The notes under the pieces were generated by a model that saw only the letters and a list, made by a program, of their open reading frames with translations, searched no databases and was not told the DNA's origin. Below, piece by piece: positions 14,000 to 56,030 of a DNA stretch of 64,000 nt. The stretch lies in assembly GCA_023150295.1 (NCBI GenBank), contig JAKLLE010000011.1, positions 1-64,000 of the forward strand. The letters are read 5' to 3'. Both the position numbers and the translations under genes were made by a program. How positions within the stretch are numbered: the first letter of the stretch is position 1; each line of letters starts with the position of its first letter. The stretch comes from Giesbergeria sp. GTDB taxonomy: Bacteria > Pseudomonadota > Gammaproteobacteria > Burkholderiales > Burkholderiaceae_C.

Positions 14000-14076
14000 G
14001 CGGCTGTAGCTCAGCTGGATAGAGTACTTGGCTACGAACCAAGGGGTCGTGGGTTCGATTCCTGCCAGCCGCACCA
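14000..14076 (+). tRNA. tRNA-Arg (anticodon ACG)
   Basis: A complete 77-nt cloverleaf: acceptor GCGGCTG / CAGCCGC, anticodon arm CTTGG-CTACGAA-CCAAG, T arm with GTTCGATTC, and encoded CCA. It is the integration site of the prophage; its last 45 bases recur at 58331-58375. Because the phage brings a matching 3' end, the tRNA stays intact. Confidence 0.96.
14032..14076 (+). repeat. attL of the prophage (45-bp core)
   Basis: From CTACGAACC in the anticodon loop to the CCA end. It is identical to 58331-58375 and marks the left prophage boundary. Confidence 0.92.
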
Positions 14077-14111: not shown

Positions 14112-14731
14112 ACCTTTTCCACCAGTGGAATGCCTGGGTAGATTTTGGGTAGGTCAGCTCCTGACTCTCCCCGTACTTCCTTCTCAAGACCCTTGAGGAA
14201 GATCGCTTTCCCGATTCGCGCAATCACCGCCTCACCCCATTCGCGCATGGCCAAGTTGACGGCCAGCGCTACCACACGGCAGTTTGCCGCGTCGTAGCCC
14301 TTGCTGGAATCGATCCGGTCTATGCTTGGCTGAAATGGCGCGGCTCGCTTGCTTGGGTCTGGGCGGTCAAAGCTCAGGGCTATTCCCGTAACTTCGCAGT
14401 AGCCGTTGCAGCGCAGCAGAATTTCTGCAACTTGCGAAGGCGTCATGCTTGCGCCACGTCCAGTTCGGCGCCCGCGATAGGCCATGCCCTGCGCGGTGCG
14501 ATGAAGCCACGACTTTCGGTCGCGCAGCATTCCTTCTACCGTGGTTTCCCAGGCGGTTTGCAGATGACGGCGTGAATACCCTCTGACATAGCGCCCGAGT
14601 ATTTCCTTGGCTTCGGCGAGGTTGCTGGTTTGCGTGCAAAGCCGGATGCGCTCCCCGCGTATCACTTTGTCGATCTTCCAGAACCCATGAGGTTCCAGAT
14701 AGAGCCCAAGAGGTTTCTTCATGTCATCCAT
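14093..14731 (-). CDS. HNH-like endonuclease with integrase-type N-terminal domain
   Basis: A 212-aa protein. The C-terminal half has the HNH/His-Me-like pattern CNGYCEVTGI...PSIDRIDSSKGYDAANCRVV...NLAMREWG. The N-terminal about 50 residues (LGLYLEPHGFWKIDKVIRGERIR...LAEAKEILGRY) resemble the N-terminal DNA-arm-binding domain of the adjacent integrase. The start overlaps the integrase stop by 8 bp. A homing-type or packaging-related nuclease is possible; the catalytic His is not obvious, so activity is uncertain. Confidence 0.65.
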   Translation of the reverse strand: MDDMKKPLGLYLEPHGFWKIDKVIRGERIRLCTQTSNLAEAKEILGRYVRGYSRRHLQTAWETTVEGMLRDRKSWLHRTAQGMAYRGRRTGRGASMTPSQVAEILLRCNGYCEVTGIALSFDRPDPSKRAAPFQPSIDRIDSSKGYDAANCRVVALAVNLAMREWGEAVIARIGKAIFLKGLEKEVRGESGADLPKIYPGIPLVEKVNPVTR

Positions 14732-15881
14732 TCACCACCTCCAATAAGCGGCGCTCTTCTTGCTCCTGGCGCAGTGTGGCCAGCGTCTTGTTCCACTTGC
14801 CCGAGTCGGCTTTGATCTTCTCCAGCGCTGCGTGCAGTTCCACGATTTGGGCCATGCTGTAGTGCTGGGTCATGGTCTTGGTGCTGTGCCACAGCACTTC
14901 GGCCACGGTGCTTTCGGCCACCCCGGCTTCGCGCAGGCGCATGCCTACGGTGTGCCGCAGGTCATGCACATGCAGATCGCCCAAGCCCGCTGCCTTGCGC
15001 GCGTTCTGCCAGGCCGTGTTGTTCATGGTCTGGATTCGGCGGTAGGGCATGGCCGGGGCCTGGTCGGTGTGCTTGACGCGCTCGCGCCGGTACACGAACA
15101 CCCACTCGGGGTGCTGGCCGCGCACCGTCTCGATGATCGACTGCGCCACGCTGTTGCACACGATGATGCGCGAGCGGCGCCCGCCCTTCACATGCTGGCG
15201 GGGCACGTCGAACACTGAGCAGCCCAGCTCGGGCACCCTGATTTCCCATTCCCAGCGCAGGCTGCACACCACGTCGTCACGCACGCCGGTATTGAGCGTG
15301 AACAGCGACATGCGCGCCAGGTGGTCTGGCAGCAGGGGCATCAGCGTGCGCTGTTGGCCCCAACTGATGGGGCGCGGCTCGCGCTGGTGGCCCACCAGGG
15401 GCAGCATGGTGATCTTGGGCGCCTGCTCCAGCCATGTCTTGCCGTCTTCGTCGCGCCAGCTCGTGGCGGCCAGATTGATGATCCGGCGCACCACGCCCAG
15501 GGCGAGGTTGATGGTCTTGTTCTTGCGGCCCTCTGCCTTGCGCGCAGCAACGTAGGGCGCCAGGGCGCCATCGTGGACTTGCGGTAGGGTGAGCTGGCCG
15601 ATGAAGGGCATGATGCTGTCGAGCAGGATGATCTCGGTAGGGAGGCTTTTCTTGTCCTGGTGCGTCGTCACGTAGTGCGCGGCGGCTTGGTCGAAGGTGC
15701 GCTCGGGGCGCATGCCGTGCAGGTGCACGGCGCGCAGCTCGCCCAGGCGCGCTATCAGCCAGCTTTCTGCCTCGCCCGCAGTTGGGAAACCGCGTTGGCG
15801 AAGGCGGGTGCCGAGATACCACTTGTCAACTTGCCAGGTTCCGTCTTTTTCGGGGTAGATGCCCCGGATTTTTTGGCCCAT
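14724..15881 (-). CDS. int: Prophage integrase (tyrosine recombinase)
   Basis: 385 aa from the ATG with a GGAAGGA site (the track start at 15908 adds 9 residues). It has an N-terminal arm-binding domain (YPEKDGTWQVDKWYLGTRLRQRG), a core-binding domain (about 75-160) and a catalytic domain with Arg in LNTGVRDDVVCSLRW, the box II HDLRHTVGMRLREAG, and the nucleophile Tyr in TKTMTQHYSMA. It lies 0.65 kb from attL in tRNA-Arg, as expected for the enzyme that inserted this phage. It overlaps the upstream putative excisionase by 127 bp. Confidence 0.95.
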   Translation of the reverse strand: MGQKIRGIYPEKDGTWQVDKWYLGTRLRQRGFPTAGEAESWLIARLGELRAVHLHGMRPERTFDQAAAHYVTTHQDKKSLPTEIILLDSIMPFIGQLTLPQVHDGALAPYVAARKAEGRKNKTINLALGVVRRIINLAATSWRDEDGKTWLEQAPKITMLPLVGHQREPRPISWGQQRTLMPLLPDHLARMSLFTLNTGVRDDVVCSLRWEWEIRVPELGCSVFDVPRQHVKGGRRSRIIVCNSVAQSIIETVRGQHPEWVFVYRRERVKHTDQAPAMPYRRIQTMNNTAWQNARKAAGLGDLHVHDLRHTVGMRLREAGVAESTVAEVLWHSTKTMTQHYSMAQIVELHAALEKIKADSGKWNKTLATLRQEQEERRLLEVVNG

Positions 15882-16144
15882 GCGTTCCTTCCTTTCTCTG
15901 TGGGCCATCCGTTCCTGGCCGCATTCTGCGCCTGCCCGTGCTCGCTGTCATTGGCTGCGCTTTGCGGCAGCCCCCCGGCATCGCGTTTGAAGTCGTCGAA
16001 AACCCGGTCGAGGTCGTTCTTGTCGAAGATGAGGCACACGCCCTGCTGGATACCCACCAGGCGGGGGAGCCACAGGGCCTCCCAGGTGCGGCGCTTGACG
16101 CCGACGTAGGCCATGGCTTCTTGTTGCGTGAGGCCGCGTTTCAT
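15755..16144 (-). CDS. Putative excisionase / HTH protein
   Basis: A 129-aa protein beginning MKRGLTQQEAMAYVGVKRRTWEALW, a MerR/AlpA-like winged-helix start, then a basic C-terminal tail. It is encoded just upstream of int and overlaps it by 127 bp, a common xis-int arrangement. The ATG overlaps the stop of the preceding small gene (ATGA). Recognition rests on the HTH-like N-terminus and on position, so excisionase is an inference. Confidence 0.65.
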   Translation of the reverse strand: MKRGLTQQEAMAYVGVKRRTWEALWLPRLVGIQQGVCLIFDKNDLDRVFDDFKRDAGGLPQSAANDSEHGQAQNAARNGWPTEKGRNAWAKKSGASTPKKTEPGKLTSGISAPAFANAVSQLRARQKAG

Positions 16145-22229: not shown

Positions 22230-22465
22230 GCTGCACCGCCTTGCACGGCGCGCCAGCCGTCAAACGTCATGCGGCCTTGCTGGGGGGTGATGGTGACCTG
22301 GGGCGCGGTGTCTGTGGTCTGGCCAGGCAGGGCTGCAAAGTCTTTGGCGCAGCGGTTGGCCTGGCGTTTGGTGGGCCAGCGGAAGGCGGCGCGCTTTCCG
22401 GTGGTTGGAAAAAGCACCTCGACCAGGTAGCTGGTCTTGGTGGCTGCTGGTGTGGTGGTCTGCAT
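22226..22465 (-). CDS. Small hypothetical phage protein
   Basis: 79 aa starting MQTTTPAATKTSYLVEVLFPTTGKRAAFRWPTKRQANRCAKDFA. It has a GGAGGAA ribosome site. Its first codons and upstream leader are duplicated 720 bp away at the start of the 23185 gene. No function known. Confidence 0.65.
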   Translation of the reverse strand: MQTTTPAATKTSYLVEVLFPTTGKRAAFRWPTKRQANRCAKDFAALPGQTTDTAPQVTITPQQGRMTFDGWRAVQGGAA

Positions 22466-22492
22466 CGTTCCTCCAGTGCGCCGGGGTGGCGT
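22441..22492. repeat. 52-bp direct repeat, copy A
   Basis: Start codon, ribosome site and leader of the 22465 gene. It differs at one base from copy B, exactly 720 bp away (23161-23212). Confidence 0.9.
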
Positions 22493-22518: not shown

Positions 22519-22971
22519 ATGGAAAGAAAAAACGTCACGCTCGACGACCTGGAGCGGCGGCACACGGCAAACCACCTGGAGCCGTATTGGGGCTGGAACC
22601 GGCTGGTGCTGTCGCTGTCGACTGGTGCGCTGACGGTGCTGGTGAGCCTGCAAGGCCACTACGTGCCCAAGCAGCCGACGTGCCCGCAATTGCTGGTGGG
22701 GGCGTGGGCACTGCTGGTGGTGTCGATTGCGGCTGGCCTGTGGGCGCTGCGCTGGAGCTACGTTGGTCCGCTGATTGCTGCGCGCAACCTGCGGCGTCTT
22801 CGCAGGCGGGCGGGTGATGCGGGCGCGGTTGTGATTCTTGAGCGCGGTGGGGGTGGTGCAACCCCGCCAGCCAGCCACCGATGGTCTGTGCGGCTGATGT
22901 CAGCCAGCTTTTTGTGCGCGCTGCTACTGCTGTGCGCGTTTGCTGGGTTGAACGTTCTGGCTTTGCGGTAA
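22519..22971 (+). CDS. Membrane protein on the opposite strand of the left operon
   Basis: 150 aa with an AAAGGAG site. A charged N-terminus (MERKNVTLDDLERRHTANHLEPYWG) is followed by three hydrophobic segments (about 28-45, 58-80 and 125-148). It opposes all flanking genes and lies inside a segment bounded by 52-bp direct repeats, which suggests an inserted cargo gene. It overlaps the low-complexity tail of the minus-strand ORF 22535-23185, and only one of the two may be real over that stretch. Confidence 0.6.
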   Translation: MERKNVTLDDLERRHTANHLEPYWGWNRLVLSLSTGALTVLVSLQGHYVPKQPTCPQLLVGAWALLVVSIAAGLWALRWSYVGPLIAARNLRRLRRRAGDAGAVVILERGGGGATPPASHRWSVRLMSASFLCALLLLCAFAGLNVLALR

Positions 22972-23185
22972 AGCCCAAGCCATCGGGGCCGCACACGTCG
23001 CGGTTGCACCGCTGGCGCATGTGATGGCAGGAAAAGAAAAGCGTGCTGCCGGTGACCGGATCGGCCTCGTGAGGCGCGGCAAGACAGAGGTGCTCGCCAT
23101 AGATTTCTGCATGGTGAGCGCAATCCACGCAAAGCGGTGCGCGGGTTTGCGTGGACTCGCTGGCTGCTGGTGTGGTGGTCTGCAT
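22535..23185 (-). CDS. Cys-rich small phage protein with doubtful long tail
   Basis: The first 60 residues look real (APLCVDCAHHAEIYGEHLCLAAPHEADPVTG, then CHHMRQRCNRDVCGPDG). This four-to-six-Cys, zinc-ribbon-like pattern is common in phage early proteins. The following about 150 residues are Pro/Ser/Ala-rich and antisense to the membrane gene, so the true protein may be shorter in evolution. First gene after the leftward promoter; start shared with 52-bp repeat copy B. Confidence 0.5.
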   Translation of the reverse strand: MQTTTPAASESTQTRAPLCVDCAHHAEIYGEHLCLAAPHEADPVTGSTLFFSCHHMRQRCNRDVCGPDGLGFTAKPERSTQQTRTAVAARTKSWLTSAAQTIGGWLAGLHHPHRAQESQPRPHHPPACEDAAGCAQQSADQRSSSAAPTGQPQSTPPAVPTPPPAIAGTSAAWARSGLAGSPAPSAHQSTATAPAGSSPNTAPGGLPCAAAPGRRA

Positions 23186-23212
23186 CGTTCCTCCAGGGCG
23201 CCGGGGTGGCGT
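23161..23212. repeat. 52-bp direct repeat, copy B
   Basis: See copy A at 22441-22492; one mismatch. It contains the start codon and ribosome site of the first gene of the left operon. Confidence 0.9.
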
Positions 23213-23220
23213 GTGGAGGA

Positions 23221-23261
23221 ATAATCACACAAGTGATTGATGGTGTCAACACTAAAGTGAT
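23221..23261 (-). promoter_or_regulatory. Leftward early promoter (PL-like) with two operators
   Basis: On the minus strand a -35 TTGACA (23249-23244) and a -10 GATTAT (23226-23221) are 17 bp apart. Two 14-bp operator-like sites, AACACTAAAGTGAT (23248-23261) and ATCACACAAGTGAT (23224-23237), lie 24 bp apart centre to centre. They touch the -35 and -10 exactly as in the cro promoter region. Expected to be repressed by the phage repressor. Confidence 0.75.
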
Positions 23262-23298: not shown

Positions 23299-23324
23299 CA
23301 AAAAAACCGCCTCGCGGGCGGTTT
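23299..23324 (-). terminator. Terminator of the repressor-side operon
   Basis: On the minus strand, an 8-bp stem AAACCGCC / GGCGGTTT is followed by seven Ts. It separates the minus-strand genes 23344-24599 from the leftward promoter. Confidence 0.85.
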
Positions 23325-23343
23325 GGTATGGGGTTGTTTGTTG

Positions 23344-23760
23344 TCAGTCGTCAGACCCGTCGTCTGCCTGGCGTCTGTCACGGTATGCCTGGTAGCCCAT
23401 TCCGCCAGCAAAGGCGGCCACCACCTTGATGATGTCCATGACAAGCGCCGTTTGGCCGGCGTGAATGGCATAGCCAGCAAAACCCAGAAGCATCACGACG
23501 ATGATGCTGGAAAACCGCTGAGACCCCTTGAGGCGCCTGGACACTTCTTCGCGCGAATGCTTTCTGTCGCGCTCCTGCGCTTCTATGGACTTGTCGGCGA
23601 TCTTTTGGTTGTGATCCAGCTCACGCAGGGCAATGTCTGCCTGCTTCAATTCAAGCGCAAGCCGCTGCTCCTGAACGGTAAGGTAGCGGTTAAGGGTTTC
23701 TTCGGATGGCGGCTGGGCGGCTACAGCGCGGCCGTTGCTGCCGGGTGGCTTTGCGCTCAT
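23344..23760 (-). CDS. Unrecognised membrane protein in rex-like position (coiled coil plus two TM)
   Basis: 138 aa. A long polar helix (about residues 25-80, VQEQRLALELKQADIALRELDHNQ) likely forms a coiled coil. Two C-terminal hydrophobic segments follow (IIVVMLLGFAGYAIHAG; MDIIKVVAAFAGGMGY) with an acidic tail. Resembles small DUF2335-type phage membrane proteins only in layout. It is the last gene before the terminator, in the repressor's orientation, so expression in the lysogen is likely. Candidate exclusion or defence protein (inference). Confidence 0.65.
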   Translation of the reverse strand: MSAKPPGSNGRAVAAQPPSEETLNRYLTVQEQRLALELKQADIALRELDHNQKIADKSIEAQERDRKHSREEVSRRLKGSQRFSSIIVVMLLGFAGYAIHAGQTALVMDIIKVVAAFAGGMGYQAYRDRRQADDGSDD

Positions 23761-23960
23761 GCAGGCACAGCGTTTCGCAAAATGGGGGTGGTGTATTCGA
23801 CCTCAAACCGCCCAAATCCGCGCTCGCCAAGGCGTGGCGCCTCGAAGCGAGAGCGCGCAATGGCGTGTGGCCGCTCGTTGACGATGCGGGCAAACTCGGC
23901 AGCAGACACCGTTTCACGCCTGACGGGTGTCATGTCGATGATGTGGGGCGTCTTCTTCAT
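23757..23960 (-). CDS. Small protein in rex-like position
   Basis: 67 aa, MKKTPHIIDMTPVRRETVSAAEFARIVNERPHAIARSRFEAPRLG. Its stop overlaps the start of the 138-aa membrane gene (ATGA), so the two are co-translated. Basic, with an SAAEFARIVN segment that could be a small HTH. No family recognised. Confidence 0.6.
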   Translation of the reverse strand: MKKTPHIIDMTPVRRETVSAAEFARIVNERPHAIARSRFEAPRLGERGFGRFEVEYTTPILRNAVPA

Positions 23961-24038
23961 CAGAAAATAGTACCACGTCTGGGCAAGGCGGTGCAGGAGT
24001 GGGCGTTACCTACTCGCCAGCGCAAAGCATGGCGCGCT

Positions 24039-24599
24039 TTACGGCGCGGGGCATGCAGTGCGCGCAGAGCGATAGCGCTCCATGCTCTTGGCGCCCCTTT
24101 CAAAGTGGGCGGCGGCCAGTATCTCGCCCAGCTTGTCGCGGTTTTGCATGAACACCAGGTAGGCCTCCACGGTTTCTTTCATCGCGTCGGCCAGATCGTC
24201 GCGGCCCGTGGCAAGGCAAGGCGGCGCCGCCAGTTGCGCTGCCTCTCGGTGTAGCGCCTGCATGGTGGCCACGGGCTGGGCCAGTGCAATGCGCCCCGTG
24301 CCGCCCGCCACGCGGCTCGCGTCATTGAAGCGCACCACCACATCGTCAAACTGCTTGAGGGCCTGGGCCAGCAGGTCGCTTTTTGCCTGCTCGGCCTTTT
24401 TGGCTTGCTCTTGCAGCGCTTCGCGCTCGCGCTGCGCGGCGGCGGCCCGCTCGGCCTCTTGCCGCTGCACCAGTTCTATGCGCTGCTGCTCGGCCTTGGC
24501 CGCAGCGCGGCTGCGCTCTTTGTAGACCACCAGCCCTGCCACGATCACCGTCACCACGGCAATGATGGCGAGGATGGACGCGCCTCGCTGGCGTTGCAT
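24039..24599 (-). CDS. Membrane-anchored coiled-coil protein in rex-like position
   Basis: 186 aa if started at MQRQRGASILAIIA (the track start adds 14 residues). One N-terminal TM segment (about 8-27), then a long Ala/Glu/Gln-rich coiled coil (about 28-85), then a globular C-terminal part with four conserved-looking short segments and two Cys. Encoded between the repressor and the smaller genes, same strand. The topology suggests inner-membrane attachment with a long periplasmic or cytoplasmic stalk. Function unknown. Confidence 0.6.
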   Translation of the reverse strand: MQRQRGASILAIIAVVTVIVAGLVVYKERSRAAAKAEQQRIELVQRQEAERAAAAQREREALQEQAKKAEQAKSDLLAQALKQFDDVVVRFNDASRVAGGTGRIALAQPVATMQALHREAAQLAAPPCLATGRDDLADAMKETVEAYLVFMQNRDKLGEILAAAHFERGAKSMERYRSARTACPAP

Positions 24600-24692
24600 G
24601 GCGGGCATTGGGTAAGCAGGGCTGTGGTGCATGGCAAACAAAAGGTGGTCACAGAATGGCGACAGTCTAGCCGCCGCACACGTTTTGCGGCA

Positions 24693-25361
24693 TCAAATCA
24701 GGCCGCCCAGTGATGCGTCCACCACCACGCCGCACCATTCATCTCCGGGTTGCAGGGGTAGATACTTCATGTCTTTGGGCCAGTCGGGGTTGATGGCTTC
24801 AAGGTATTTTTGCCCGTCGATCAGCACGTAGCGTTTGAAAGTCGCTTCAAGCGTTGAGTTGCGGCGCACCACCACATAGTTGCCCGGCACAGGGTCGAGG
24901 TGTGGGTTAACGTGTAGCACCATGCCTTCGGCAAAGCTCGGTTTGCCGGTCGGGTTTTCCATGGACTTGCCTTCGACCCGCAGCATGTAGCCGCATTTGC
25001 CCAAATTCTTGGTGGATGGCAGCCATTCATCGGCCTGCCCAGGCTGAAAGTGGTCGCACAACTCTGTCCATGCGCCAGCCTGCACTTTCGAGATAAGAGG
25101 GTAGGTGCCCTTGATGTCGGGGCCGGGTGATGTGTTGGTATGGGCGGCGACTGTTTCGTTGCAGCGCAAATAGTCTGGCGTGACGCCAAGCACGCGCGCT
25201 ATGTCCACAACGCTATCTCCATAGCCGCGCGTTTCGCGCTCGATGTTGCCAATTGTCCCCTGGCTTTTTAGGCCAGCAAGCGATGCAAGTGCCCCCTGGG
25301 AGAGTCCTTTGCTCTCCCGGATTCTCTTAAGGCGTTGGCCGATTGTTTCCATGCAAGGCAT
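24693..25361 (-). CDS. Phage repressor, CI type with S24 peptidase domain
   Basis: 222 aa from the ATG preceded by a perfect GGAGGTGAT site (the track start lies upstream in operator DNA). N-terminal HTH (IGQRLKRIRESKGLSQGALASLAGL); Ala-Gly self-cleavage site in SKVQAGAW; C-terminal LexA-like domain with Ser in VEGKSMEN and Lys in EATFKRYV. All residues for RecA-stimulated self-cleavage are there. It should bind the paired ATCAC-N4-GTGAT operators on either side and maintain lysogeny; SOS induction is expected. Confidence 0.93.
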   Translation of the reverse strand: MPCMETIGQRLKRIRESKGLSQGALASLAGLKSQGTIGNIERETRGYGDSVVDIARVLGVTPDYLRCNETVAAHTNTSPGPDIKGTYPLISKVQAGAWTELCDHFQPGQADEWLPSTKNLGKCGYMLRVEGKSMENPTGKPSFAEGMVLHVNPHLDPVPGNYVVVRRNSTLEATFKRYVLIDGQKYLEAINPDWPKDMKYLPLQPGDEWCGVVVDASLGGLI

Positions 25362-25377
25362 TTCATCACCTCCGTGA

Positions 25378-25418
25378 ATCACTTTGGTGTTGACTTGTGG
25401 AATCACTTGAGTGATGAT
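25378..25418 (+). promoter_or_regulatory. Rightward early promoter (PR-like) with two operators
   Basis: -35 TTGACT (25390-25395) and -10 GATGAT (25413-25418) are 17 bp apart. Operators ATCACTTTGGTGTT (25378-25391) and ATCACTTGAGTGAT (25402-25415, perfect palindrome with a two-base centre) have centres 24 bp apart. It drives the Cro-like gene. The repressor's own promoter must read the other way through the same region. Confidence 0.8.
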
Positions 25419-25425
25419 CGGACGC

Positions 25426-25728
25426 ATGAATGCACTTCAAACAGCAATCGACATCCTTGGCGGGGTGGGAAAGCTGGCTGTCGCTATTGGCGTTGGTCAG
25501 CCGGTTGTGAGTAACTGGCGAGCGCGTGGCACTGTCCCTGACGCGGCCACATGCGTTGCCATTGAGCGAGCTACAAGCGGCGCCGTCACCCGCCGCGACC
25601 TGCGCCCCGACGACTGGCACCTGATCTGGCCCGAGCTTGCTGATTCCAATCCAAATCAACCCGCAGCGCCCGCCAATCAAGCGCTGGTAGCTATCAATTC
25701 CGAAGTATCTGGAGCCATCCATGCCTAA
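25426..25728 (+). CDS. Cro-like / YdaS-type regulator
   Basis: 100 aa from MNALQTAIDILGG. The HTH GGVGKLAVAIGVGQPVVSNWRARGTVPDAATCVAIERATSG is the YdaS/Cro arrangement, in which the protein opposes the CI repressor. Divergent from the repressor with the operators between. The C-terminal tail NQALVAINSEVSGA is contributed by an in-frame copy of the AGCTATCAA repeat and is probably not part of the fold. Confidence 0.88.
   Translation: MNALQTAIDILGGVGKLAVAIGVGQPVVSNWRARGTVPDAATCVAIERATSGAVTRRDLRPDDWHLIWPELADSNPNQPAAPANQALVAINSEVSGAIHA
25678..25716 (+). repeat. AGCTATCAA-type repeat, copy 1
   Basis: CAAGCGCTGGTAGCTATCAA... in frame at the end of the Cro-like gene (peptide QALVAINSEVSGA). Confidence 0.7.
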
Positions 25729-25960
25729 GCGCGTATCGCAGGCGGCTGTCTTTCGTGCGGGCCGTGGGCCGCTGTTTTCACAGTGTCCTGATGGCGCGCT
25801 GGAAATCGTCCGCGCAAGCGGGTATCGCCTGGTGCTCAGCGCGGCTGAGGTGGCAGCTATCCGTACATTGCCGCCGCCGCCCGATCTCCAATCCAAAACT
25901 GCGTGTGTACTTTCTTTGCATCCGCTTTCTTCCACTTGCGGGAGCGGTAGCAATGCATAG
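25721..25960 (+). CDS. Small phage protein after cro
   Basis: 79 aa; the ATG overlaps the cro stop. The first 50 residues (VSQAAVFRAGRGPLFSQCPDGALEIVRASGYRLVLSAAEVAAIRTL) look like a compact beta-alpha domain. The last 30 are opposite the minus-strand 69-aa gene and look random. Function unknown. Confidence 0.5.
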   Translation: MPKRVSQAAVFRAGRGPLFSQCPDGALEIVRASGYRLVLSAAEVAAIRTLPPPPDLQSKTACVLSLHPLSSTCGSGSNA

Positions 25961-26066
25961 CAATGCCAGCGGCCTGTTTGTCTGTCAGCGCGAAGTAGCT
26001 GGCCACCCTGATGTGAATTTCGCCGATCTTGAACGTGGTCGGGTGAATGATGTTTGGCAGGTTCAT
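25857..26066 (-). CDS. Small phage accessory protein (69 aa) with duplicated leader
   Basis: MNLPNIIHPTTFKIGEIHIRVASYFALTDKQAAGIAMHCYRSRKWKKADAK..., basic, with a GAGAGGGA ribosome site. Transcribed against the right operon. The 73 bp covering its start and leader recur before the 107-aa gene at 27020. No family recognised. Confidence 0.55.
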   Translation of the reverse strand: MNLPNIIHPTTFKIGEIHIRVASYFALTDKQAAGIAMHCYRSRKWKKADAKKVHTQFWIGDRAAAAMYG

Positions 26067-26134
26067 GGGCATCCCTCTCGAAAGGTGGTTGATTGTGAGA
26101 AGTGAATTGTCTTTCGTTTGCGGATGCCCGCCAA
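26062..26134. repeat. 73-bp direct repeat (leader), copy C
   Basis: 70 of 73 bases match 27016-27088. It includes the start codon, ribosome site and upstream region of the minus-strand gene. On the plus strand it opens a 46-codon ORF starting MGIPLERWLIV. Confidence 0.88.
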
Positions 26135-26157
26135 ATCAGCCCCCAGCGCCCGCCAAT

Positions 26158-26190
26158 CAAGCGCAAGTGGCTATCAATACAGAAGCGGCG
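26158..26190 (+). repeat. AGCTATCAA-type repeat, copy 2
   Basis: CAAGCGCAAGTGGCTATCAA..., in frame at the end of the 46-codon plus-strand ORF (QAQVAINTEAAGVA). Confidence 0.7.
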
Positions 26191-26204
26191 GGGGTTGCCT
26201 GATG

Positions 26205-26555
26205 TCAGCCACCCAGGTGCTTCGTCAGCAGGTTCGCCGCCACCTGGCTGAACACGCCAAACACCCATCCCGTGCCAAAACTCAGCAGGCCGAATGCCGC
26301 CTGTCCCAGCCGGTAGCGCAGGGTGCGTTTGCGCTGCTGCTCGGCCAGTTCGTCGGCGTACAGCCGCCCCTTCATGGTGGGCGCAAAGCCCACCAGGGCG
26401 GTGATCTGCCCATACGCCAGGTGCGACTTGCTGACCTGGTAGTGCCCGTGGGCGTATCCGTTGTCGATCAGTTCGCGCGCGGCCCAGTAGTCGGCCTGCG
26501 CGGGCGCGGCGCCATTCAACAACCGGAGGTATGTGCTCTTGAAACCCTTTGACAT
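26205..26555 (-). CDS. Membrane-associated phage accessory protein
   Basis: 116 aa, MSKGFKSTYLRLLNGAAPAQADYWAARELIDNGYAHG.... A polar N-terminal domain is followed by a hydrophobic C-terminal stretch (QAAFGLLSFGTGWVFGVFSQVAANLL) that could cross or enter the membrane. Minus strand within the rightward region, so it needs its own promoter and may be expressed in the lysogen. Function unknown. Confidence 0.6.
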   Translation of the reverse strand: MSKGFKSTYLRLLNGAAPAQADYWAARELIDNGYAHGHYQVSKSHLAYGQITALVGFAPTMKGRLYADELAEQQRKRTLRYRLGQAAFGLLSFGTGWVFGVFSQVAANLLTKHLGG

Positions 26556-26700
26556 CGTGCTTCTCTTGCTGTTCGCGGTGGGGGCCGTGTGCGGCTCTGT
26601 GTGGGCTGCAACTTATCTCATCCCCACGTTTTTTCCAAGCCTTGTGGTGGTGCAGCAAGCGCAAGTCGCTACAAATTCCGAAGCGCAGGGGGCGGCCTAA
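26533..26700 (+). CDS. Small single-pass membrane protein (55 aa)
   Basis: Too short for the track. GTG (or TTG two codons later) behind CGGAGG. Hydrophobic LKPFDIVLLLLFAVGAVCG, then a soluble tail ending QQAQVATNSEAQGAA from an in-frame AGCTATCAA-type repeat. The start overlaps the 26555 gene on the other strand. Confidence 0.5.
   Translation: MLLKPFDIVLLLLFAVGAVCGSVWAATYLIPTFFPSLVVVQQAQVATNSEAQGAA
26656..26690 (+). repeat. AGCTATCAA-type repeat, copy 3
   Basis: CAAGCGCAAGTCGCTACAAA..., in frame at the end of the 55-aa membrane ORF. Confidence 0.65.
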
Positions 26701-27020
26701 TGCCCCGCTTCGCCTCTGCCTGCCAGGTACATCTGTACCGCGATGTAGCTGGCGTACTGCATGCGTGCCTGGCCGTCGATGTGCTGGCCCGGCCTGTGCG
26801 CCGCGCACCACGCGGGAAATCGAACTGTATCCAGCGTTACACGGACGGTTCTTGCTCCCTTCCGGCTCAGTTGCTCTTCCGTGCGCTGGGCTGCCCCAAG
26901 CCACTCGGCGTAGGTGCCAAACAGTCCGTCCTTGTCGTGCATGAGGGCGCAGACCCGCTCGTAGCTCTCGGGCTCGTACCACGGCAGGGGCGCAAGTTGA
27001 GCGGGGGTGTTTTGTTTCAT
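26697..27020 (-). CDS. Phage accessory protein (107 aa) with duplicated leader
   Basis: Starts MKQNTPAQLAPLPWYEPESYERVCALMHDKDGLFGTYAEWLGAAQ at the ATG behind GAGAGGGA (the track start is 28 codons upstream inside the leader repeat). Soluble alpha/beta, with an RTVRVTLDTVRFPAWCA stretch. Same orientation and near-identical leader as the 26066 gene. No family recognised. Confidence 0.65.
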   Translation of the reverse strand: MKQNTPAQLAPLPWYEPESYERVCALMHDKDGLFGTYAEWLGAAQRTEEQLSRKGARTVRVTLDTVRFPAWCAAHRPGQHIDGQARMQYASYIAVQMYLAGRGEAGH

Positions 27021-27088
27021 GGGCGTCCCTCTCGAAAGGTGGTTGATTGTGGAAAGTGAATTGTCTTTCGTTTGCGGATGCCCGCCAA
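27016..27088. repeat. 73-bp direct repeat (leader), copy D
   Basis: Matches 26062-26134 at 70 of 73 positions; start of the 107-aa gene. Confidence 0.88.
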
Positions 27089-27111
27089 TTTGGCTCTTGG
27101 CCACCGCCCAT

Positions 27112-27146
27112 CAAGCGCCAGCAGCTATCAAAACCGTAGCGCAGGA
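27112..27146 (+). repeat. AGCTATCAA-type repeat, copy 4
   Basis: CAAGCGCCAGCAGCTATCAA..., closest to the consensus. In frame in a small plus-strand ORF (HQAPAAIKTVAQEVAHG), with the downstream AGGAGG inside its 3' end. Confidence 0.7.
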
Positions 27147-27154
27147 GGTGGCCC

Positions 27155-27481
27155 ATGGGTGAGCACAAGCGGGTTTTCCTGGACGTGAGCGCCGTTGATC
27201 GCGCCTGCGCAGACGTCAGTTTGCAGGGGGTGTTTGCGTGCCCTGTGTTTGCCGCAGTTGTTGCTGGCGGGCTGTTATCACGTCTGACCATTCCTGCCAG
27301 AACTTTGGCTGCTGAAAGCGCGGGTGCAGCAGTGCCACCTGGTGGTCTACCTCTGCCTCGTAATCCTCCAGCACAGCGGGGAGGGCCTCCAGCGGAACCC
27401 GAGCCAGCAGGGCTCTCACCATCGCCCCGAGCGCCAGCTGGCGGCTCATCGTCTGGCGAAACGTGTTTTGGAGGTCGTTGA
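27155..27481 (+). CDS. Doubtful ORF with a strong ribosome site
   Basis: ATG behind AGGAGG. The first 35 residues (MGEHKRVFLDVSAVDRACADVSLQG) look coding, but from residue about 45 the sequence is Pro/Gly-rich and antisense to the 102-aa gene. Possibly a rightward gene whose 3' end was replaced. Confidence 0.3.
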   Translation: MGEHKRVFLDVSAVDRACADVSLQGVFACPVFAAVVAGGLLSRLTIPARTLAAESAGAAVPPGGLPLPRNPPAQRGGPPAEPEPAGLSPSPRAPAGGSSSGETCFGGR

Positions 27482-27524
27482 TGGCTTTGATCGTTTCTTG
27501 CTGGAACTTTTCCGGGTCGTGCAT
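27216..27524 (-). CDS. Hypothetical phage protein
   Basis: 102 aa, helical: MHDPEKFQQETIKAINDLQNTFRQTMSRQLALGAMVRALLARVPLEALPAVLEDYEAEVDHQ. No cysteine or membrane features. Minus strand, like the two genes to its left. A coiled-coil or small regulatory protein is possible; nothing firmer. Confidence 0.6.
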   Translation of the reverse strand: MHDPEKFQQETIKAINDLQNTFRQTMSRQLALGAMVRALLARVPLEALPAVLEDYEAEVDHQVALLHPRFQQPKFWQEWSDVITARQQQLRQTQGTQTPPAN

Positions 27525-54528: not shown

Positions 54529-55485
54529 ATGAACCCCTTGAAACGCTGGCGCTGGTGGGCCGTGCTGGCCTTGCCTGTCGCTGTGATCGCAATCAACAGC
54601 TTCGGCCCCGATGGCTGGCGTGAGCCAGTGGTAAAGCTGCTGTGGCTGTCGTGGACGGCGCTGTGCGTTGCGCTGGCCCACAGCGCGCGCAAAGCCCTGT
54701 TCGACTATGCCCACGGGCGCGAGGCATGGCTCAAGGCCATGCAGCACCCCGTGGGCGCGGGCCTTGCGTTCCTGGGCCTGTGCCTTGTGTCTGCTGTGCT
54801 GGTGCTGGCCTTCACCGGCTTTGCGCGGGCGCAGCCCGTGCCGCAGCCCGCGCAGGCCATGGCGCCGCTGGTGGTGCACGAGATCGAGCAGCACTGGCCC
54901 GCCGCGCCGCGCCGCAGCTACCTTGGCGCGTTGATCGAAAAGGAAACCTGCATCACCCTGGCGCATCGCTCTTGCTGGAGCACCACGGCCCGCCTCAAAA
55001 CCAGCAGGGAAGAGGGCGCAGGCCTGGGGCAGCTTACCCGCGCTTGGCGGCCCGACGGCACACTGCGCTTTGACGCGCTGGAGGAAGCCCGCGCAATGGC
55101 GCCGCAGGCCCTGCGCGAACTGAACTGGGCCAACGTGTACACCCGCGCAGACCTGGGCGTGCGCGCCATCATCGTCAAGCTGCGCGACTGCCACAGCCGC
55201 TTTGAGCGCCTGGGGATTGACGACGAAATGGCCCGCCTGGCGTTTTGCGATGCGGCCTACAACGGCGGCCTGGGCGGCGTGCAGCAAGACCGCAAGCTCT
55301 GCGCCCTGACCGACGGTTGCGACCCCGCGCAGTGGTTCGGCCACGTGGAGCACCACAGCGCCAAGAGCCGCACGCCCTGGCAGGGCTACGGCGCGAGCGC
55401 GTTCGAGATCAACCGCGCCCACGTGCGCGCCACCGTGCCGCTGGAGCCCCGGCGGTGGCGGTATGCGCAATGGCTGGGGGTCTAG
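54529..55485 (+). CDS. Holin-like domain fused to lytic transglycosylase-like endolysin
   Basis: 318 aa. Residues 1-105 hold two or three hydrophobic segments (WWAVLALPVAVIAINSFG; LLWLSWTALCVALAH; AGLAFLGLCLVSAVLVLAFTGFARA) with the look of phage 2-3 TM holins. Residues 115-318 resemble lysozyme-like transglycosylases, with a candidate catalytic Glu in GALIEKETC, the GAGLGQLTRAW motif and AYNGGLGGV. In other phages these are separate genes; here one uninterrupted frame encodes both. Could act as a membrane-tethered (SAR-like) endolysin. Confidence 0.75.
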   Translation: MNPLKRWRWWAVLALPVAVIAINSFGPDGWREPVVKLLWLSWTALCVALAHSARKALFDYAHGREAWLKAMQHPVGAGLAFLGLCLVSAVLVLAFTGFARAQPVPQPAQAMAPLVVHEIEQHWPAAPRRSYLGALIEKETCITLAHRSCWSTTARLKTSREEGAGLGQLTRAWRPDGTLRFDALEEARAMAPQALRELNWANVYTRADLGVRAIIVKLRDCHSRFERLGIDDEMARLAFCDAAYNGGLGGVQQDRKLCALTDGCDPAQWFGHVEHHSAKSRTPWQGYGASAFEINRAHVRATVPLEPRRWRYAQWLGV

Positions 55486-55487
55486 CC

Positions 55488-56030
55488 ATGCTCGACAAGA
55501 TCAAGGCCTACGGCTTCCAGGCCCTTGCGCTGGCGTTGGGCGTGCTGCTGCTGGTGCAAACCGGGCGGCTGCACACCGAGCAAGTAGCGCACGAAAAGCT
55601 CAAGACCAGCACGGCCCAAGCGGCCACTGAGCGCGCCACGGCGGCGCTCACCATCGAGCGGCAAGCCGCGGCCAAGGAATCCACCCACGCGCAGCAAACC
55701 CAGGAGGTATCCGATGCGTTCACCGTTTCACAGCCCGTGCGCGATGCTCTGCACCGCGCTGATCTTGCTCGCGTTGAGCGGCTGCGCCTCGACCAGGCCC
55801 GCAGAGCCGCCACCTACCGCGCGATGTCCCAAGCCTGCGCCGCTGCCAGCGGCGGTGTCGCGGATCGACTTGCAGCCCTCGACGCCCAGCTTGTCGAAGG
55901 CGTTGCAGTGGTCGGAGACCTCAGAGCAGTTATTGCGCGGCGAGACGCCGAAGTAGTGCTGTTGCGCGGCGTGGTCGATGCAGACCGCGCTTTGACAACG
56001 CCGGATGCAGCCCCATCGGCTGCGCCCTGA
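55488..56030 (+). CDS. Rz-like spanin (inner-membrane subunit)
   Basis: 180 aa. N-terminal TM (YGFQALALALGVLLLVQTG), then a long coiled coil (HEKLKTSTAQAATERATAALTIERQAAAKESTHAQQ...). Follows the endolysin by two bases. With the embedded lipoprotein it forms the spanin pair that fuses inner and outer membranes at the last step of lysis. Confidence 0.85.
   Translation: MLDKIKAYGFQALALALGVLLLVQTGRLHTEQVAHEKLKTSTAQAATERATAALTIERQAAAKESTHAQQTQEVSDAFTVSQPVRDALHRADLARVERLRLDQARRAATYRAMSQACAAASGGVADRLAALDAQLVEGVAVVGDLRAVIARRDAEVVLLRGVVDADRALTTPDAAPSAAP
55714..55956 (+). CDS. Rz1-like spanin lipoprotein nested in Rz
   Basis: 80 aa in a second frame within Rz: signal peptide with lipobox LALSGC, then a Pro-rich mature part (STRPAEPPPTARCPKPAPLP). 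It lies entirely within Rz, the lambda arrangement. AGGAGG is located 9 bases upstream of the ATG. Confidence 0.85.
   Translation: MRSPFHSPCAMLCTALILLALSGCASTRPAEPPPTARCPKPAPLPAAVSRIDLQPSTPSLSKALQWSETSEQLLRGETPK

What the first reader, a model, noticed from the sequence alone, without database searches (positions are those of the whole stretch)
23299..25361. Rex-like lysogen operon: repressor plus three unrecognised genes, two membrane-associated
Between the CI-type repressor and the leftward promoter, on the repressor strand and closed by a strong terminator, lie genes for a TM plus coiled-coil protein (186 aa), a 67-aa basic protein and a coiled-coil plus two-TM protein (138 aa). Lambda keeps rexA-rexB, its superinfection-exclusion genes, in exactly this place. 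The families are unrecognised, so this is the best candidate here for an undescribed prophage exclusion or anti-phage system. The position is seen; the function is inference.
Basis: partly seen in the sequence, partly recalled or inferred. Interest (0 to 1): 0.82.

Follow-up and report, generated by a model that had tools for sequence, protein, structure and literature searches.

The report
Lysogen-expressed membrane gene cassette in prophage
Next to the gene that keeps a sleeping virus dormant in this bacterium lies a small self-contained two-gene cassette, with its own promoter-like and terminator signals, that recurs at different places in unrelated viruses and resembles a widespread membrane-protein family of unknown function, so it is a good but untested candidate for a new way prophages shut out competing viruses.

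Summary
On the minus strand: S24 repressor (25361-24693), 186-aa TM/coiled-coil protein (24599-24039), 67-aa protein (23960-23757), 138-aa coiled-coil/two-TM protein (23760-23344), hairpin terminator, then a leftward promoter under operators matching those at the repressor. This is the lambda rexAB slot.

The Rex-like reading is partly supported; the three genes are not one unit. The last two form a conserved pair in seven other prophage or viral loci (29-72% identity), always with the same 4-nt ATGA overlap. They sit after repressors, reversed in a Mu-like phage, beside a holin, and among virion genes. In 5 of 7 independent loci an extended -10 ends 6-9 nt before the first ATG, usually without a Shine-Dalgarno; nearly all have a terminator. 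So the pair is an autonomous moron. The 138-aa protein is a distant relative of DUF2335 (PF10097), uncharacterised in the papers held, whose gene usually also follows a small overlapping gene at phage lysogenic-conversion sites. A prophage with a 55%-identical repressor carries a DUF2335 pair in the same slot and order. The 186-aa protein is separate envelope cargo.

It is neither RexAB nor a lysis gene. Exclusion or abortive infection at the inner membrane is the likeliest function, unproven.

The parts
24693..25361 (-). CI-type repressor, HTH_3 + Peptidase_S24, 222 aa
24039..24599 (-). 186-aa exported cargo: N-terminal TM anchor, coiled coil, C-terminal domain with two conserved cysteines (C128, C183)
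23967..23975 (-). Extended -10 element TGGTACTAT, 6 nt before the ATG of the 67-aa gene, no Shine-Dalgarno: putative leaderless promoter of the pair
23757..23960 (-). 67-aa soluble partner (phrog_2711); predicted beta-alpha-beta-beta fold
23344..23760 (-). 138-aa membrane protein (phrog_2720, distant DUF2335 relative): long helix running into TM1, then TM2; start overlaps the 67-aa stop (ATGA)
23299..23324 (-). Intrinsic terminator hairpin plus T-run
23221..23249 (-). Leftward (PL-like) promoter TTGACA-17-GATTAT
23224..23237 (.). Operator-like palindrome over the PL-like promoter
23248..23261 (.). Operator-like palindrome at the PL-like promoter
25378..25391 (.). Operator-like palindrome at the repressor/cro junction
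25402..25415 (.). Operator-like palindrome (perfect) at the repressor/cro junction
25411..25728 (+). Cro-like regulator (phrog_35), divergent from the repressor

Best explanation
The region is the lysogeny cargo slot of an intact-looking lambda-type prophage. It holds two things: (i) an autonomous two-gene moron, 67-aa soluble protein plus 138-aa inner-membrane protein, translationally coupled by an ATGA overlap, with its own extended -10 (probably leaderless) promoter and a terminator, so it can be transcribed from the silent prophage and also by read-through from the repressor gene; and (ii) an exchangeable membrane-anchored extracytoplasmic protein (186 aa) next to the repressor. Shown: anatomy, conservation, mobility, distant relation of the 138-aa protein to DUF2335, and replacement by a DUF2335 pair at the same slot in a related prophage. 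Inferred: the 138-aa protein oligomerises through its cytoplasmic helix in the inner membrane, the 67-aa protein binds it as a sensor or restraint, and a superinfecting phage releases or triggers it, perturbing the membrane and stopping the infection (RexB-like in logic, not in ancestry). The 186-aa protein probably acts separately at the envelope.
For: Pair conserved with an identical ATGA overlap in all 8 sequences checked and in four genome contexts: after repressors (window, L005, L006, L007), divergent in a Mu-like phage (L009), opposite strand beside a holin (L018), between virion genes of Paracidovorax prophages (L022, L023). Extended -10 within 5-9 nt of a start: exact in 5 of 7 independent loci against one other gene (two orthologous copies) among 265 called genes. 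Terminator hairpin after the pair in all but L018. DUF2335 relation: phrog_3996, which hits the same loci as PF10097, E 3.9e-4; hhalign 95.4%, score 54, against at most 48% and score 31 for 17 reversed or shuffled controls. Same slot and order in L079: repressor (55% id), 187-aa TM protein, 83-aa, DUF2335. DUF2335 pairs at lysogenic-conversion sites of temperate phages. Precedents for soluble+membrane exclusion pairs in this slot, some with their own promoter: lambda, CarolAnn, Sbash, P. putida P1 (PMC12894663, PMC6426606).
Against: No expression, toxicity or phage-challenge data. DUF2335 itself has no known function in the papers held. Promoter and TSS are sequence inference, and the loci are related by descent. 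Two TMs are fewer than the four of RexB-type proteins. No structural match for either protein with a function attached. In Paracidovorax the pair lies in the late region on the late strand, where it would also be made in lytic growth. The DUF2335 similarity is strongest over the TM hairpin and depends on shallow profiles.
Confidence: 0.42

Rival explanations
1. Entry-blocking superinfection exclusion: the membrane and periplasmic proteins sit passively at the envelope and block DNA injection of some phages, as P22 SieA does; no triggered cell arrest.
For: The slot repeatedly holds exported proteins: anchored disulphide-type domain (window, L037, L043), lipoprotein (L069, L070), secreted HNH protein (L006, L007), secreted 197-aa protein (L078). 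P22 SieA is necessary and sufficient for its exclusion (PMC10883804).
Against: A soluble partner coupled to the membrane protein suggests regulation. The 186-aa domain also occurs in non-prophage chromosomal settings, so it need not be anti-phage.
Confidence: 0.22
2. Toxin-antitoxin or maintenance module, or another host-benefit gene pair unrelated to phage exclusion (membrane stress, growth control).
For: Small gene overlapping a small membrane protein gene, own promoter, mobile between phages; DUF2335 pairs also on chromosomes; Phrann gp32 (marginal DUF2335 match) sits beside HicAB.
Against: No known TA family matched in Pfam or NCBIfam. Copies of the 67+138 pair are in prophages or viral contigs; none in 72,556 plasmids.
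Confidence: 0.25
3. Lysis or virion function (holin, antiholin, spanin).
For: Two-TM membrane protein; weak spanin-like profile match of the 186-aa protein (phrog_5151, E 5.7e-4); neighbours a holin in L018; late region in L022 and L023.
Against: The prophage has its own lysis cassette at 54529-56030 (endolysin with N-terminal TMs, Rz with nested Rz1 lipoprotein). The pair is on the lysogeny strand here and antisense to late genes in L009 and L018. The 186-aa homologues L041 and L045 are chromosomal and L044 lacks the coiled coil.
Confidence: 0.05

Closest known systems
DUF2335 (PF10097; phrog_3996) with its small upstream gene
   Same: Coiled-coil region followed by a two-TM hairpin and basic tail; preceded by a small gene that usually overlaps it; lysogenic-conversion positions in temperate phages; same slot and order in L079.
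   Different: The window protein does not score in PF10097 (not listed at E<=1) and matches only by weak profile comparison. Its partner is an unrelated 67-aa family without the W-x-x-[VI]-G motif found in 6 of 8 DUF2335 partners.
Lambda RexA-RexB and RexAB-type systems (CarolAnn 43/44, Sbash 30/31, P. putida PP_5643/5644)
   Same: Position between repressor and leftward promoter; soluble plus membrane pair; co-direction with the repressor.
   Different: 67 aa against a 279-aa RexA (size from memory), two TMs against four, no sequence match; the pair is an autonomous cassette found elsewhere too.
BstA of Salmonella prophage BTP1
   Same: Accessory defence gene directly downstream of the repressor.
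   Different: Single soluble protein; no homology to any of the three found here.
P22 SieA
   Same: Lysogen-expressed inner-membrane exclusion protein.
   Different: Single protein; no sequence relation found.

Membership tests
Prophage moron (accessory locus) | Absent from some relatives at the same site and found at several unrelated sites | tested here: met
   Four kinds of site; related phages carry other or no cargo at those sites
Prophage moron (accessory locus) | Own promoter and terminator | tested here: met
   Sequence level only: extended -10 in 5 of 7 loci, terminator in all but L018; no RNA data
Prophage moron (accessory locus) | Expressed in the lysogen | not testable with these tools
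   Needs RNA-seq
RexAB | Homology to RexA or RexB | tested here: not met
   No match in Pfam, NCBIfam, PADLOC or PDB sequences
RexAB | Membrane partner with four TM helices | tested here: not met
   Two TMs by hydropathy and AF2 model
RexAB | Location between repressor and leftward promoter, same strand | tested here: met
RexAB | Infection-triggered membrane depolarisation and abortive infection | not testable with these tools
   Needs phage challenge
DUF2335 (PF10097) | Score above the Pfam gathering cut-off | tested here: not met
   Not listed at E<=1 for the 138-aa protein
DUF2335 (PF10097) | Profile-level similarity of coiled-coil plus TM hairpin | tested here: met
   hhalign 95.4% against 48% or less in 17 controls; phrog_3996 E 3.9e-4
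DUF2335 module | Small overlapping upstream gene with W-x-x-[VI]-G | tested here: not met
   Small coupled gene present, but of another family without the motif
Spanin / holin | Part of the lysis cassette on the late strand | tested here: not met
   Separate complete lysis cassette at 54529-56030
Known defence families in PADLOC (2023) | Profile match to a catalogued defence protein | tested here: not met
   Nothing beyond chance-level scores for the three cargo proteins; BstA itself was not compared directly

The most novel reading that the evidence does not exclude
The pair and DUF2335 modules are two branches of one undescribed superfamily of prophage two-gene membrane exclusion systems (small soluble partner plus coiled-coil/two-TM effector), spread from Proteobacteria to Staphylococcus, Streptococcus and lactic-acid-bacteria phages, with interchangeable partners and positions.
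Probability: 0.3. Interest if true: 0.82.

Novelty: new variant of a known kind. Interest (0 to 1): 0.55.

Why it matters
The cI-to-PL slot is a known hotspot for prophage defence genes, yet most occupants are unstudied. Here a mobile cassette can be delimited precisely, with candidate promoter, coupled genes and terminator, and tied to DUF2335, a family for which the held literature gives no function. If DUF2335-type pairs are exclusion systems, one mechanism would explain many hypothetical genes next to integrases, lysins and repressors in phages of very different hosts, and it can be tested with DUF2335 pairs already present in isolated phages such as Pseudomonas MD8 or Lactococcus D6890.

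Tried and rejected
RexAB membership: no sequence match. Spanin/holin: a weak spanin hit of the 186-aa protein is judged compositional, and the phage has its own lysis genes. EccE (E 2.9e-4) and ThsB_TIR Pfam hits of the 138-aa protein are below cut-off and on the coiled coil: not pursued. tblastn against 50,697 phage records and 72,556 plasmids found no relative of the pair; GTDB genomes gave only two Paracidovorax hits and samples of 201 and 369 genomes gave none besides the window. Fold search of the 67-aa model gave only one uncharacterised viral protein of note (A0A8S5QMZ5, prob 1.0, E 0.03) and nothing in PDB; the 138-aa model gave nothing. Phrann gp32 as a link to a tested defence locus: match only E 1e-3, kept as a lead. 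tRNA near the pair in L018: none found. The sigma-70 scan does not list the extended -10, so that element rests on comparison between loci.

Full report
Observation. The minus strand from 25361 to 23299 reads: repressor, 186-aa gene, 67-aa gene, 138-aa gene, terminator. The repressor is an HTH plus S24-peptidase protein. A Cro-like gene starts on the other strand at 25411. The leftward promoter lies just past the terminator. Two operator-like palindromes sit at each end; four such sites in the window are reached by only 1 of 100 shuffles. The terminator folds at -11.8 kcal/mol followed by a T-run. The prophage begins near an integrase (14724-15908) beside tRNA-Arg (14000-14076) and has terminase, tape measure and a complete lysis cassette.

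The 67- and 138-aa genes are a unit. They match phrog_2711 and phrog_2720, both of unknown function. IMG/VR and GTDB, with the window, yielded seven independent loci: window, L005 (same contig as L008), L006, L007, L009, L018, and L012/L013, which correspond to the Paracidovorax loci L022/L023 and count as one. Every copy has both genes in the same order with the overlap ATGA. Identity to the window is 44-61% for the small and 29-71% for the large protein in full alignment. Substitutions are mostly synonymous.

The unit is mobile. It follows a repressor in the window, L005, L006 and L007. In L009 it stands alone, opposite to the genes of a Mu-like phage. In L018 it is convergent with a holin/lysozyme block. 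In L022/L023 it lies between two virion genes. Relatives of the latter phage have other or no cargo between these genes.

The unit carries its own signals. Immediately before the first ATG stands TGnTAnnnT, 6-9 nt away: window TGGTACTAT, L005 TGCTAATAT, L006 TGCTACCAT, L007 TGTTAGGAT, L022 TGCTATTAT. L009 has one mismatch, and L018 has none but has a Shine-Dalgarno-like sequence; L007 also has an AGGA that could serve as one. Among 265 called genes in ten sequences only seven starts carry this element: five are copies of the small gene, and the other two are one orthologous gene that is divergent from the pair in L022/L023; the L005 copy was missed by the gene caller. The spacing fits transcription starting at the A of the ATG, that is, a leaderless mRNA. 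This is inference; no RNA data exist here, and shared descent of the copies limits the statistics. A hairpin with a T-rich tail follows the large gene in all loci but L018.

Relation to DUF2335. phrog_3996, a weak hit of the 138-aa protein (E 3.9e-4), finds the same genome places as PF10097. Profile comparison gives 95.4% (score 54) against DUF2335, while reversed, shuffled and block-shuffled controls reach at most 48% (score 31), and an unrelated TM family gives 2%. The match is concentrated in the end of the coiled coil and the TM hairpin. Pfam itself does not call the protein DUF2335, so it is a distant relative, not a member.

DUF2335 genes follow the same plan. In eight cases checked a small gene lies upstream, overlapping in seven, and six of the eight carry W-x-x-[VI]-G against 4 of 170 control small genes. 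In isolated temperate phages these pairs sit after the lysis genes and next to the integrase (IME-SA4), after the amidase (D6890), after the lysin at the genome end (Javan433), near the genome end (P2.4), or beside the integrase (MD8). RAH1, MoxS-R1 and BUCT711 have DUF2335 genes without such an overlapping annotated partner. The only two held papers naming DUF2335 give no functional study.

Most telling, a prophage with a 55%-identical repressor (L079) carries, in the same slot, strand and order, a 187-aa TM/coiled-coil protein with a tRNA_anti-like domain, an 83-aa protein and a DUF2335 protein, the last two overlapping. The window's and this module look like functional equivalents exchanged at one site.

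The 186-aa protein is different cargo. It belongs to an unnamed family seen in 13 of 301 genomes of the host family. The seven aligned members share a TM, signal or lipoprotein-like start and two invariant cysteines. L037 and L043 carry it after phage repressors; L041, L044 and L045 are in non-prophage settings. Other repressor slots hold lipoproteins, secreted proteins or a secreted HNH protein. Exported products in this slot are thus a recurring theme.

Structure. The 67-aa protein models as beta-alpha-beta-beta (pLDDT 78), with one uncharacterised viral look-alike and no PDB match. The 138-aa protein models as an 82-residue helix running through TM1 and a return TM2 helix (pLDDT 70). Basic residues before TM1 and after TM2 suggest both ends are cytoplasmic (inference).

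Mechanism. Lysogen-expressed soluble-plus-membrane pairs in this slot exclude phages in lambda, CarolAnn and P. putida P1, and Sbash expresses its pair from its own promoter (PMC12894663, PMC6426606). By analogy I take the 138-aa protein as an inner-membrane effector controlled by the 67-aa protein, acting on superinfection. Entry blocking, a TA/maintenance role and another host benefit remain open. Lysis and RexAB homology were tested and not met.

Verdict. A real, well-delimited moron cassette of a new variant, linked here to DUF2335; exclusion is plausible, unproven.

Noticed in passing
25857-27524 (minus strand): Four more small genes (71, 116, about 120-135, 102 aa) on the repressor strand, antisense to the early rightward region, with near-copies of a ~140-nt leader (26062-26199 and 27016-27153, 83% identical) and a shorter third copy at 25651-25705: an array of duplicated moron-like units.
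   Followed up: partly
22519-22971 (plus strand): 150-aa multi-TM protein gene running against the leftward operon, no Pfam or PHROG match.
   Followed up: partly
22432-22492 and 23152-23212: 61-nt repeat, 93% identical, overlapping the starts of two leftward-operon ORFs.
   Followed up: no
L006:7452-7769 and L007:7391-7741: Secreted HNH-type proteins (Pfam HNH for L006) between repressor and the pair: a possible periplasmic nuclease acting on incoming phage DNA.
   Followed up: partly
L022:9227-9574 and L023:9229-9573 (minus): Secreted 115-aa gene divergent from the pair with the same extended -10 close to its ATG: a second moron at the same site.
   Followed up: partly
L079:4871-5434 (minus): Membrane-anchored tRNA_anti-like (PF12869) protein directly after a prophage repressor.
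   Followed up: no
54529-55485: Endolysin with several predicted N-terminal TM segments, possibly a holin-endolysin fusion, followed by overlapping Rz/Rz1.
   Followed up: partly
L081:4686-5159: 157-aa two-TM protein shortly downstream of a related repressor, architecture like SLATT proteins (from memory); no Pfam match.
   Followed up: no
L042:6799-10413: Several near-identical short reading frames repeated in an intergenic stretch beside a chromosomal homologue of the 186-aa protein.
   Followed up: no
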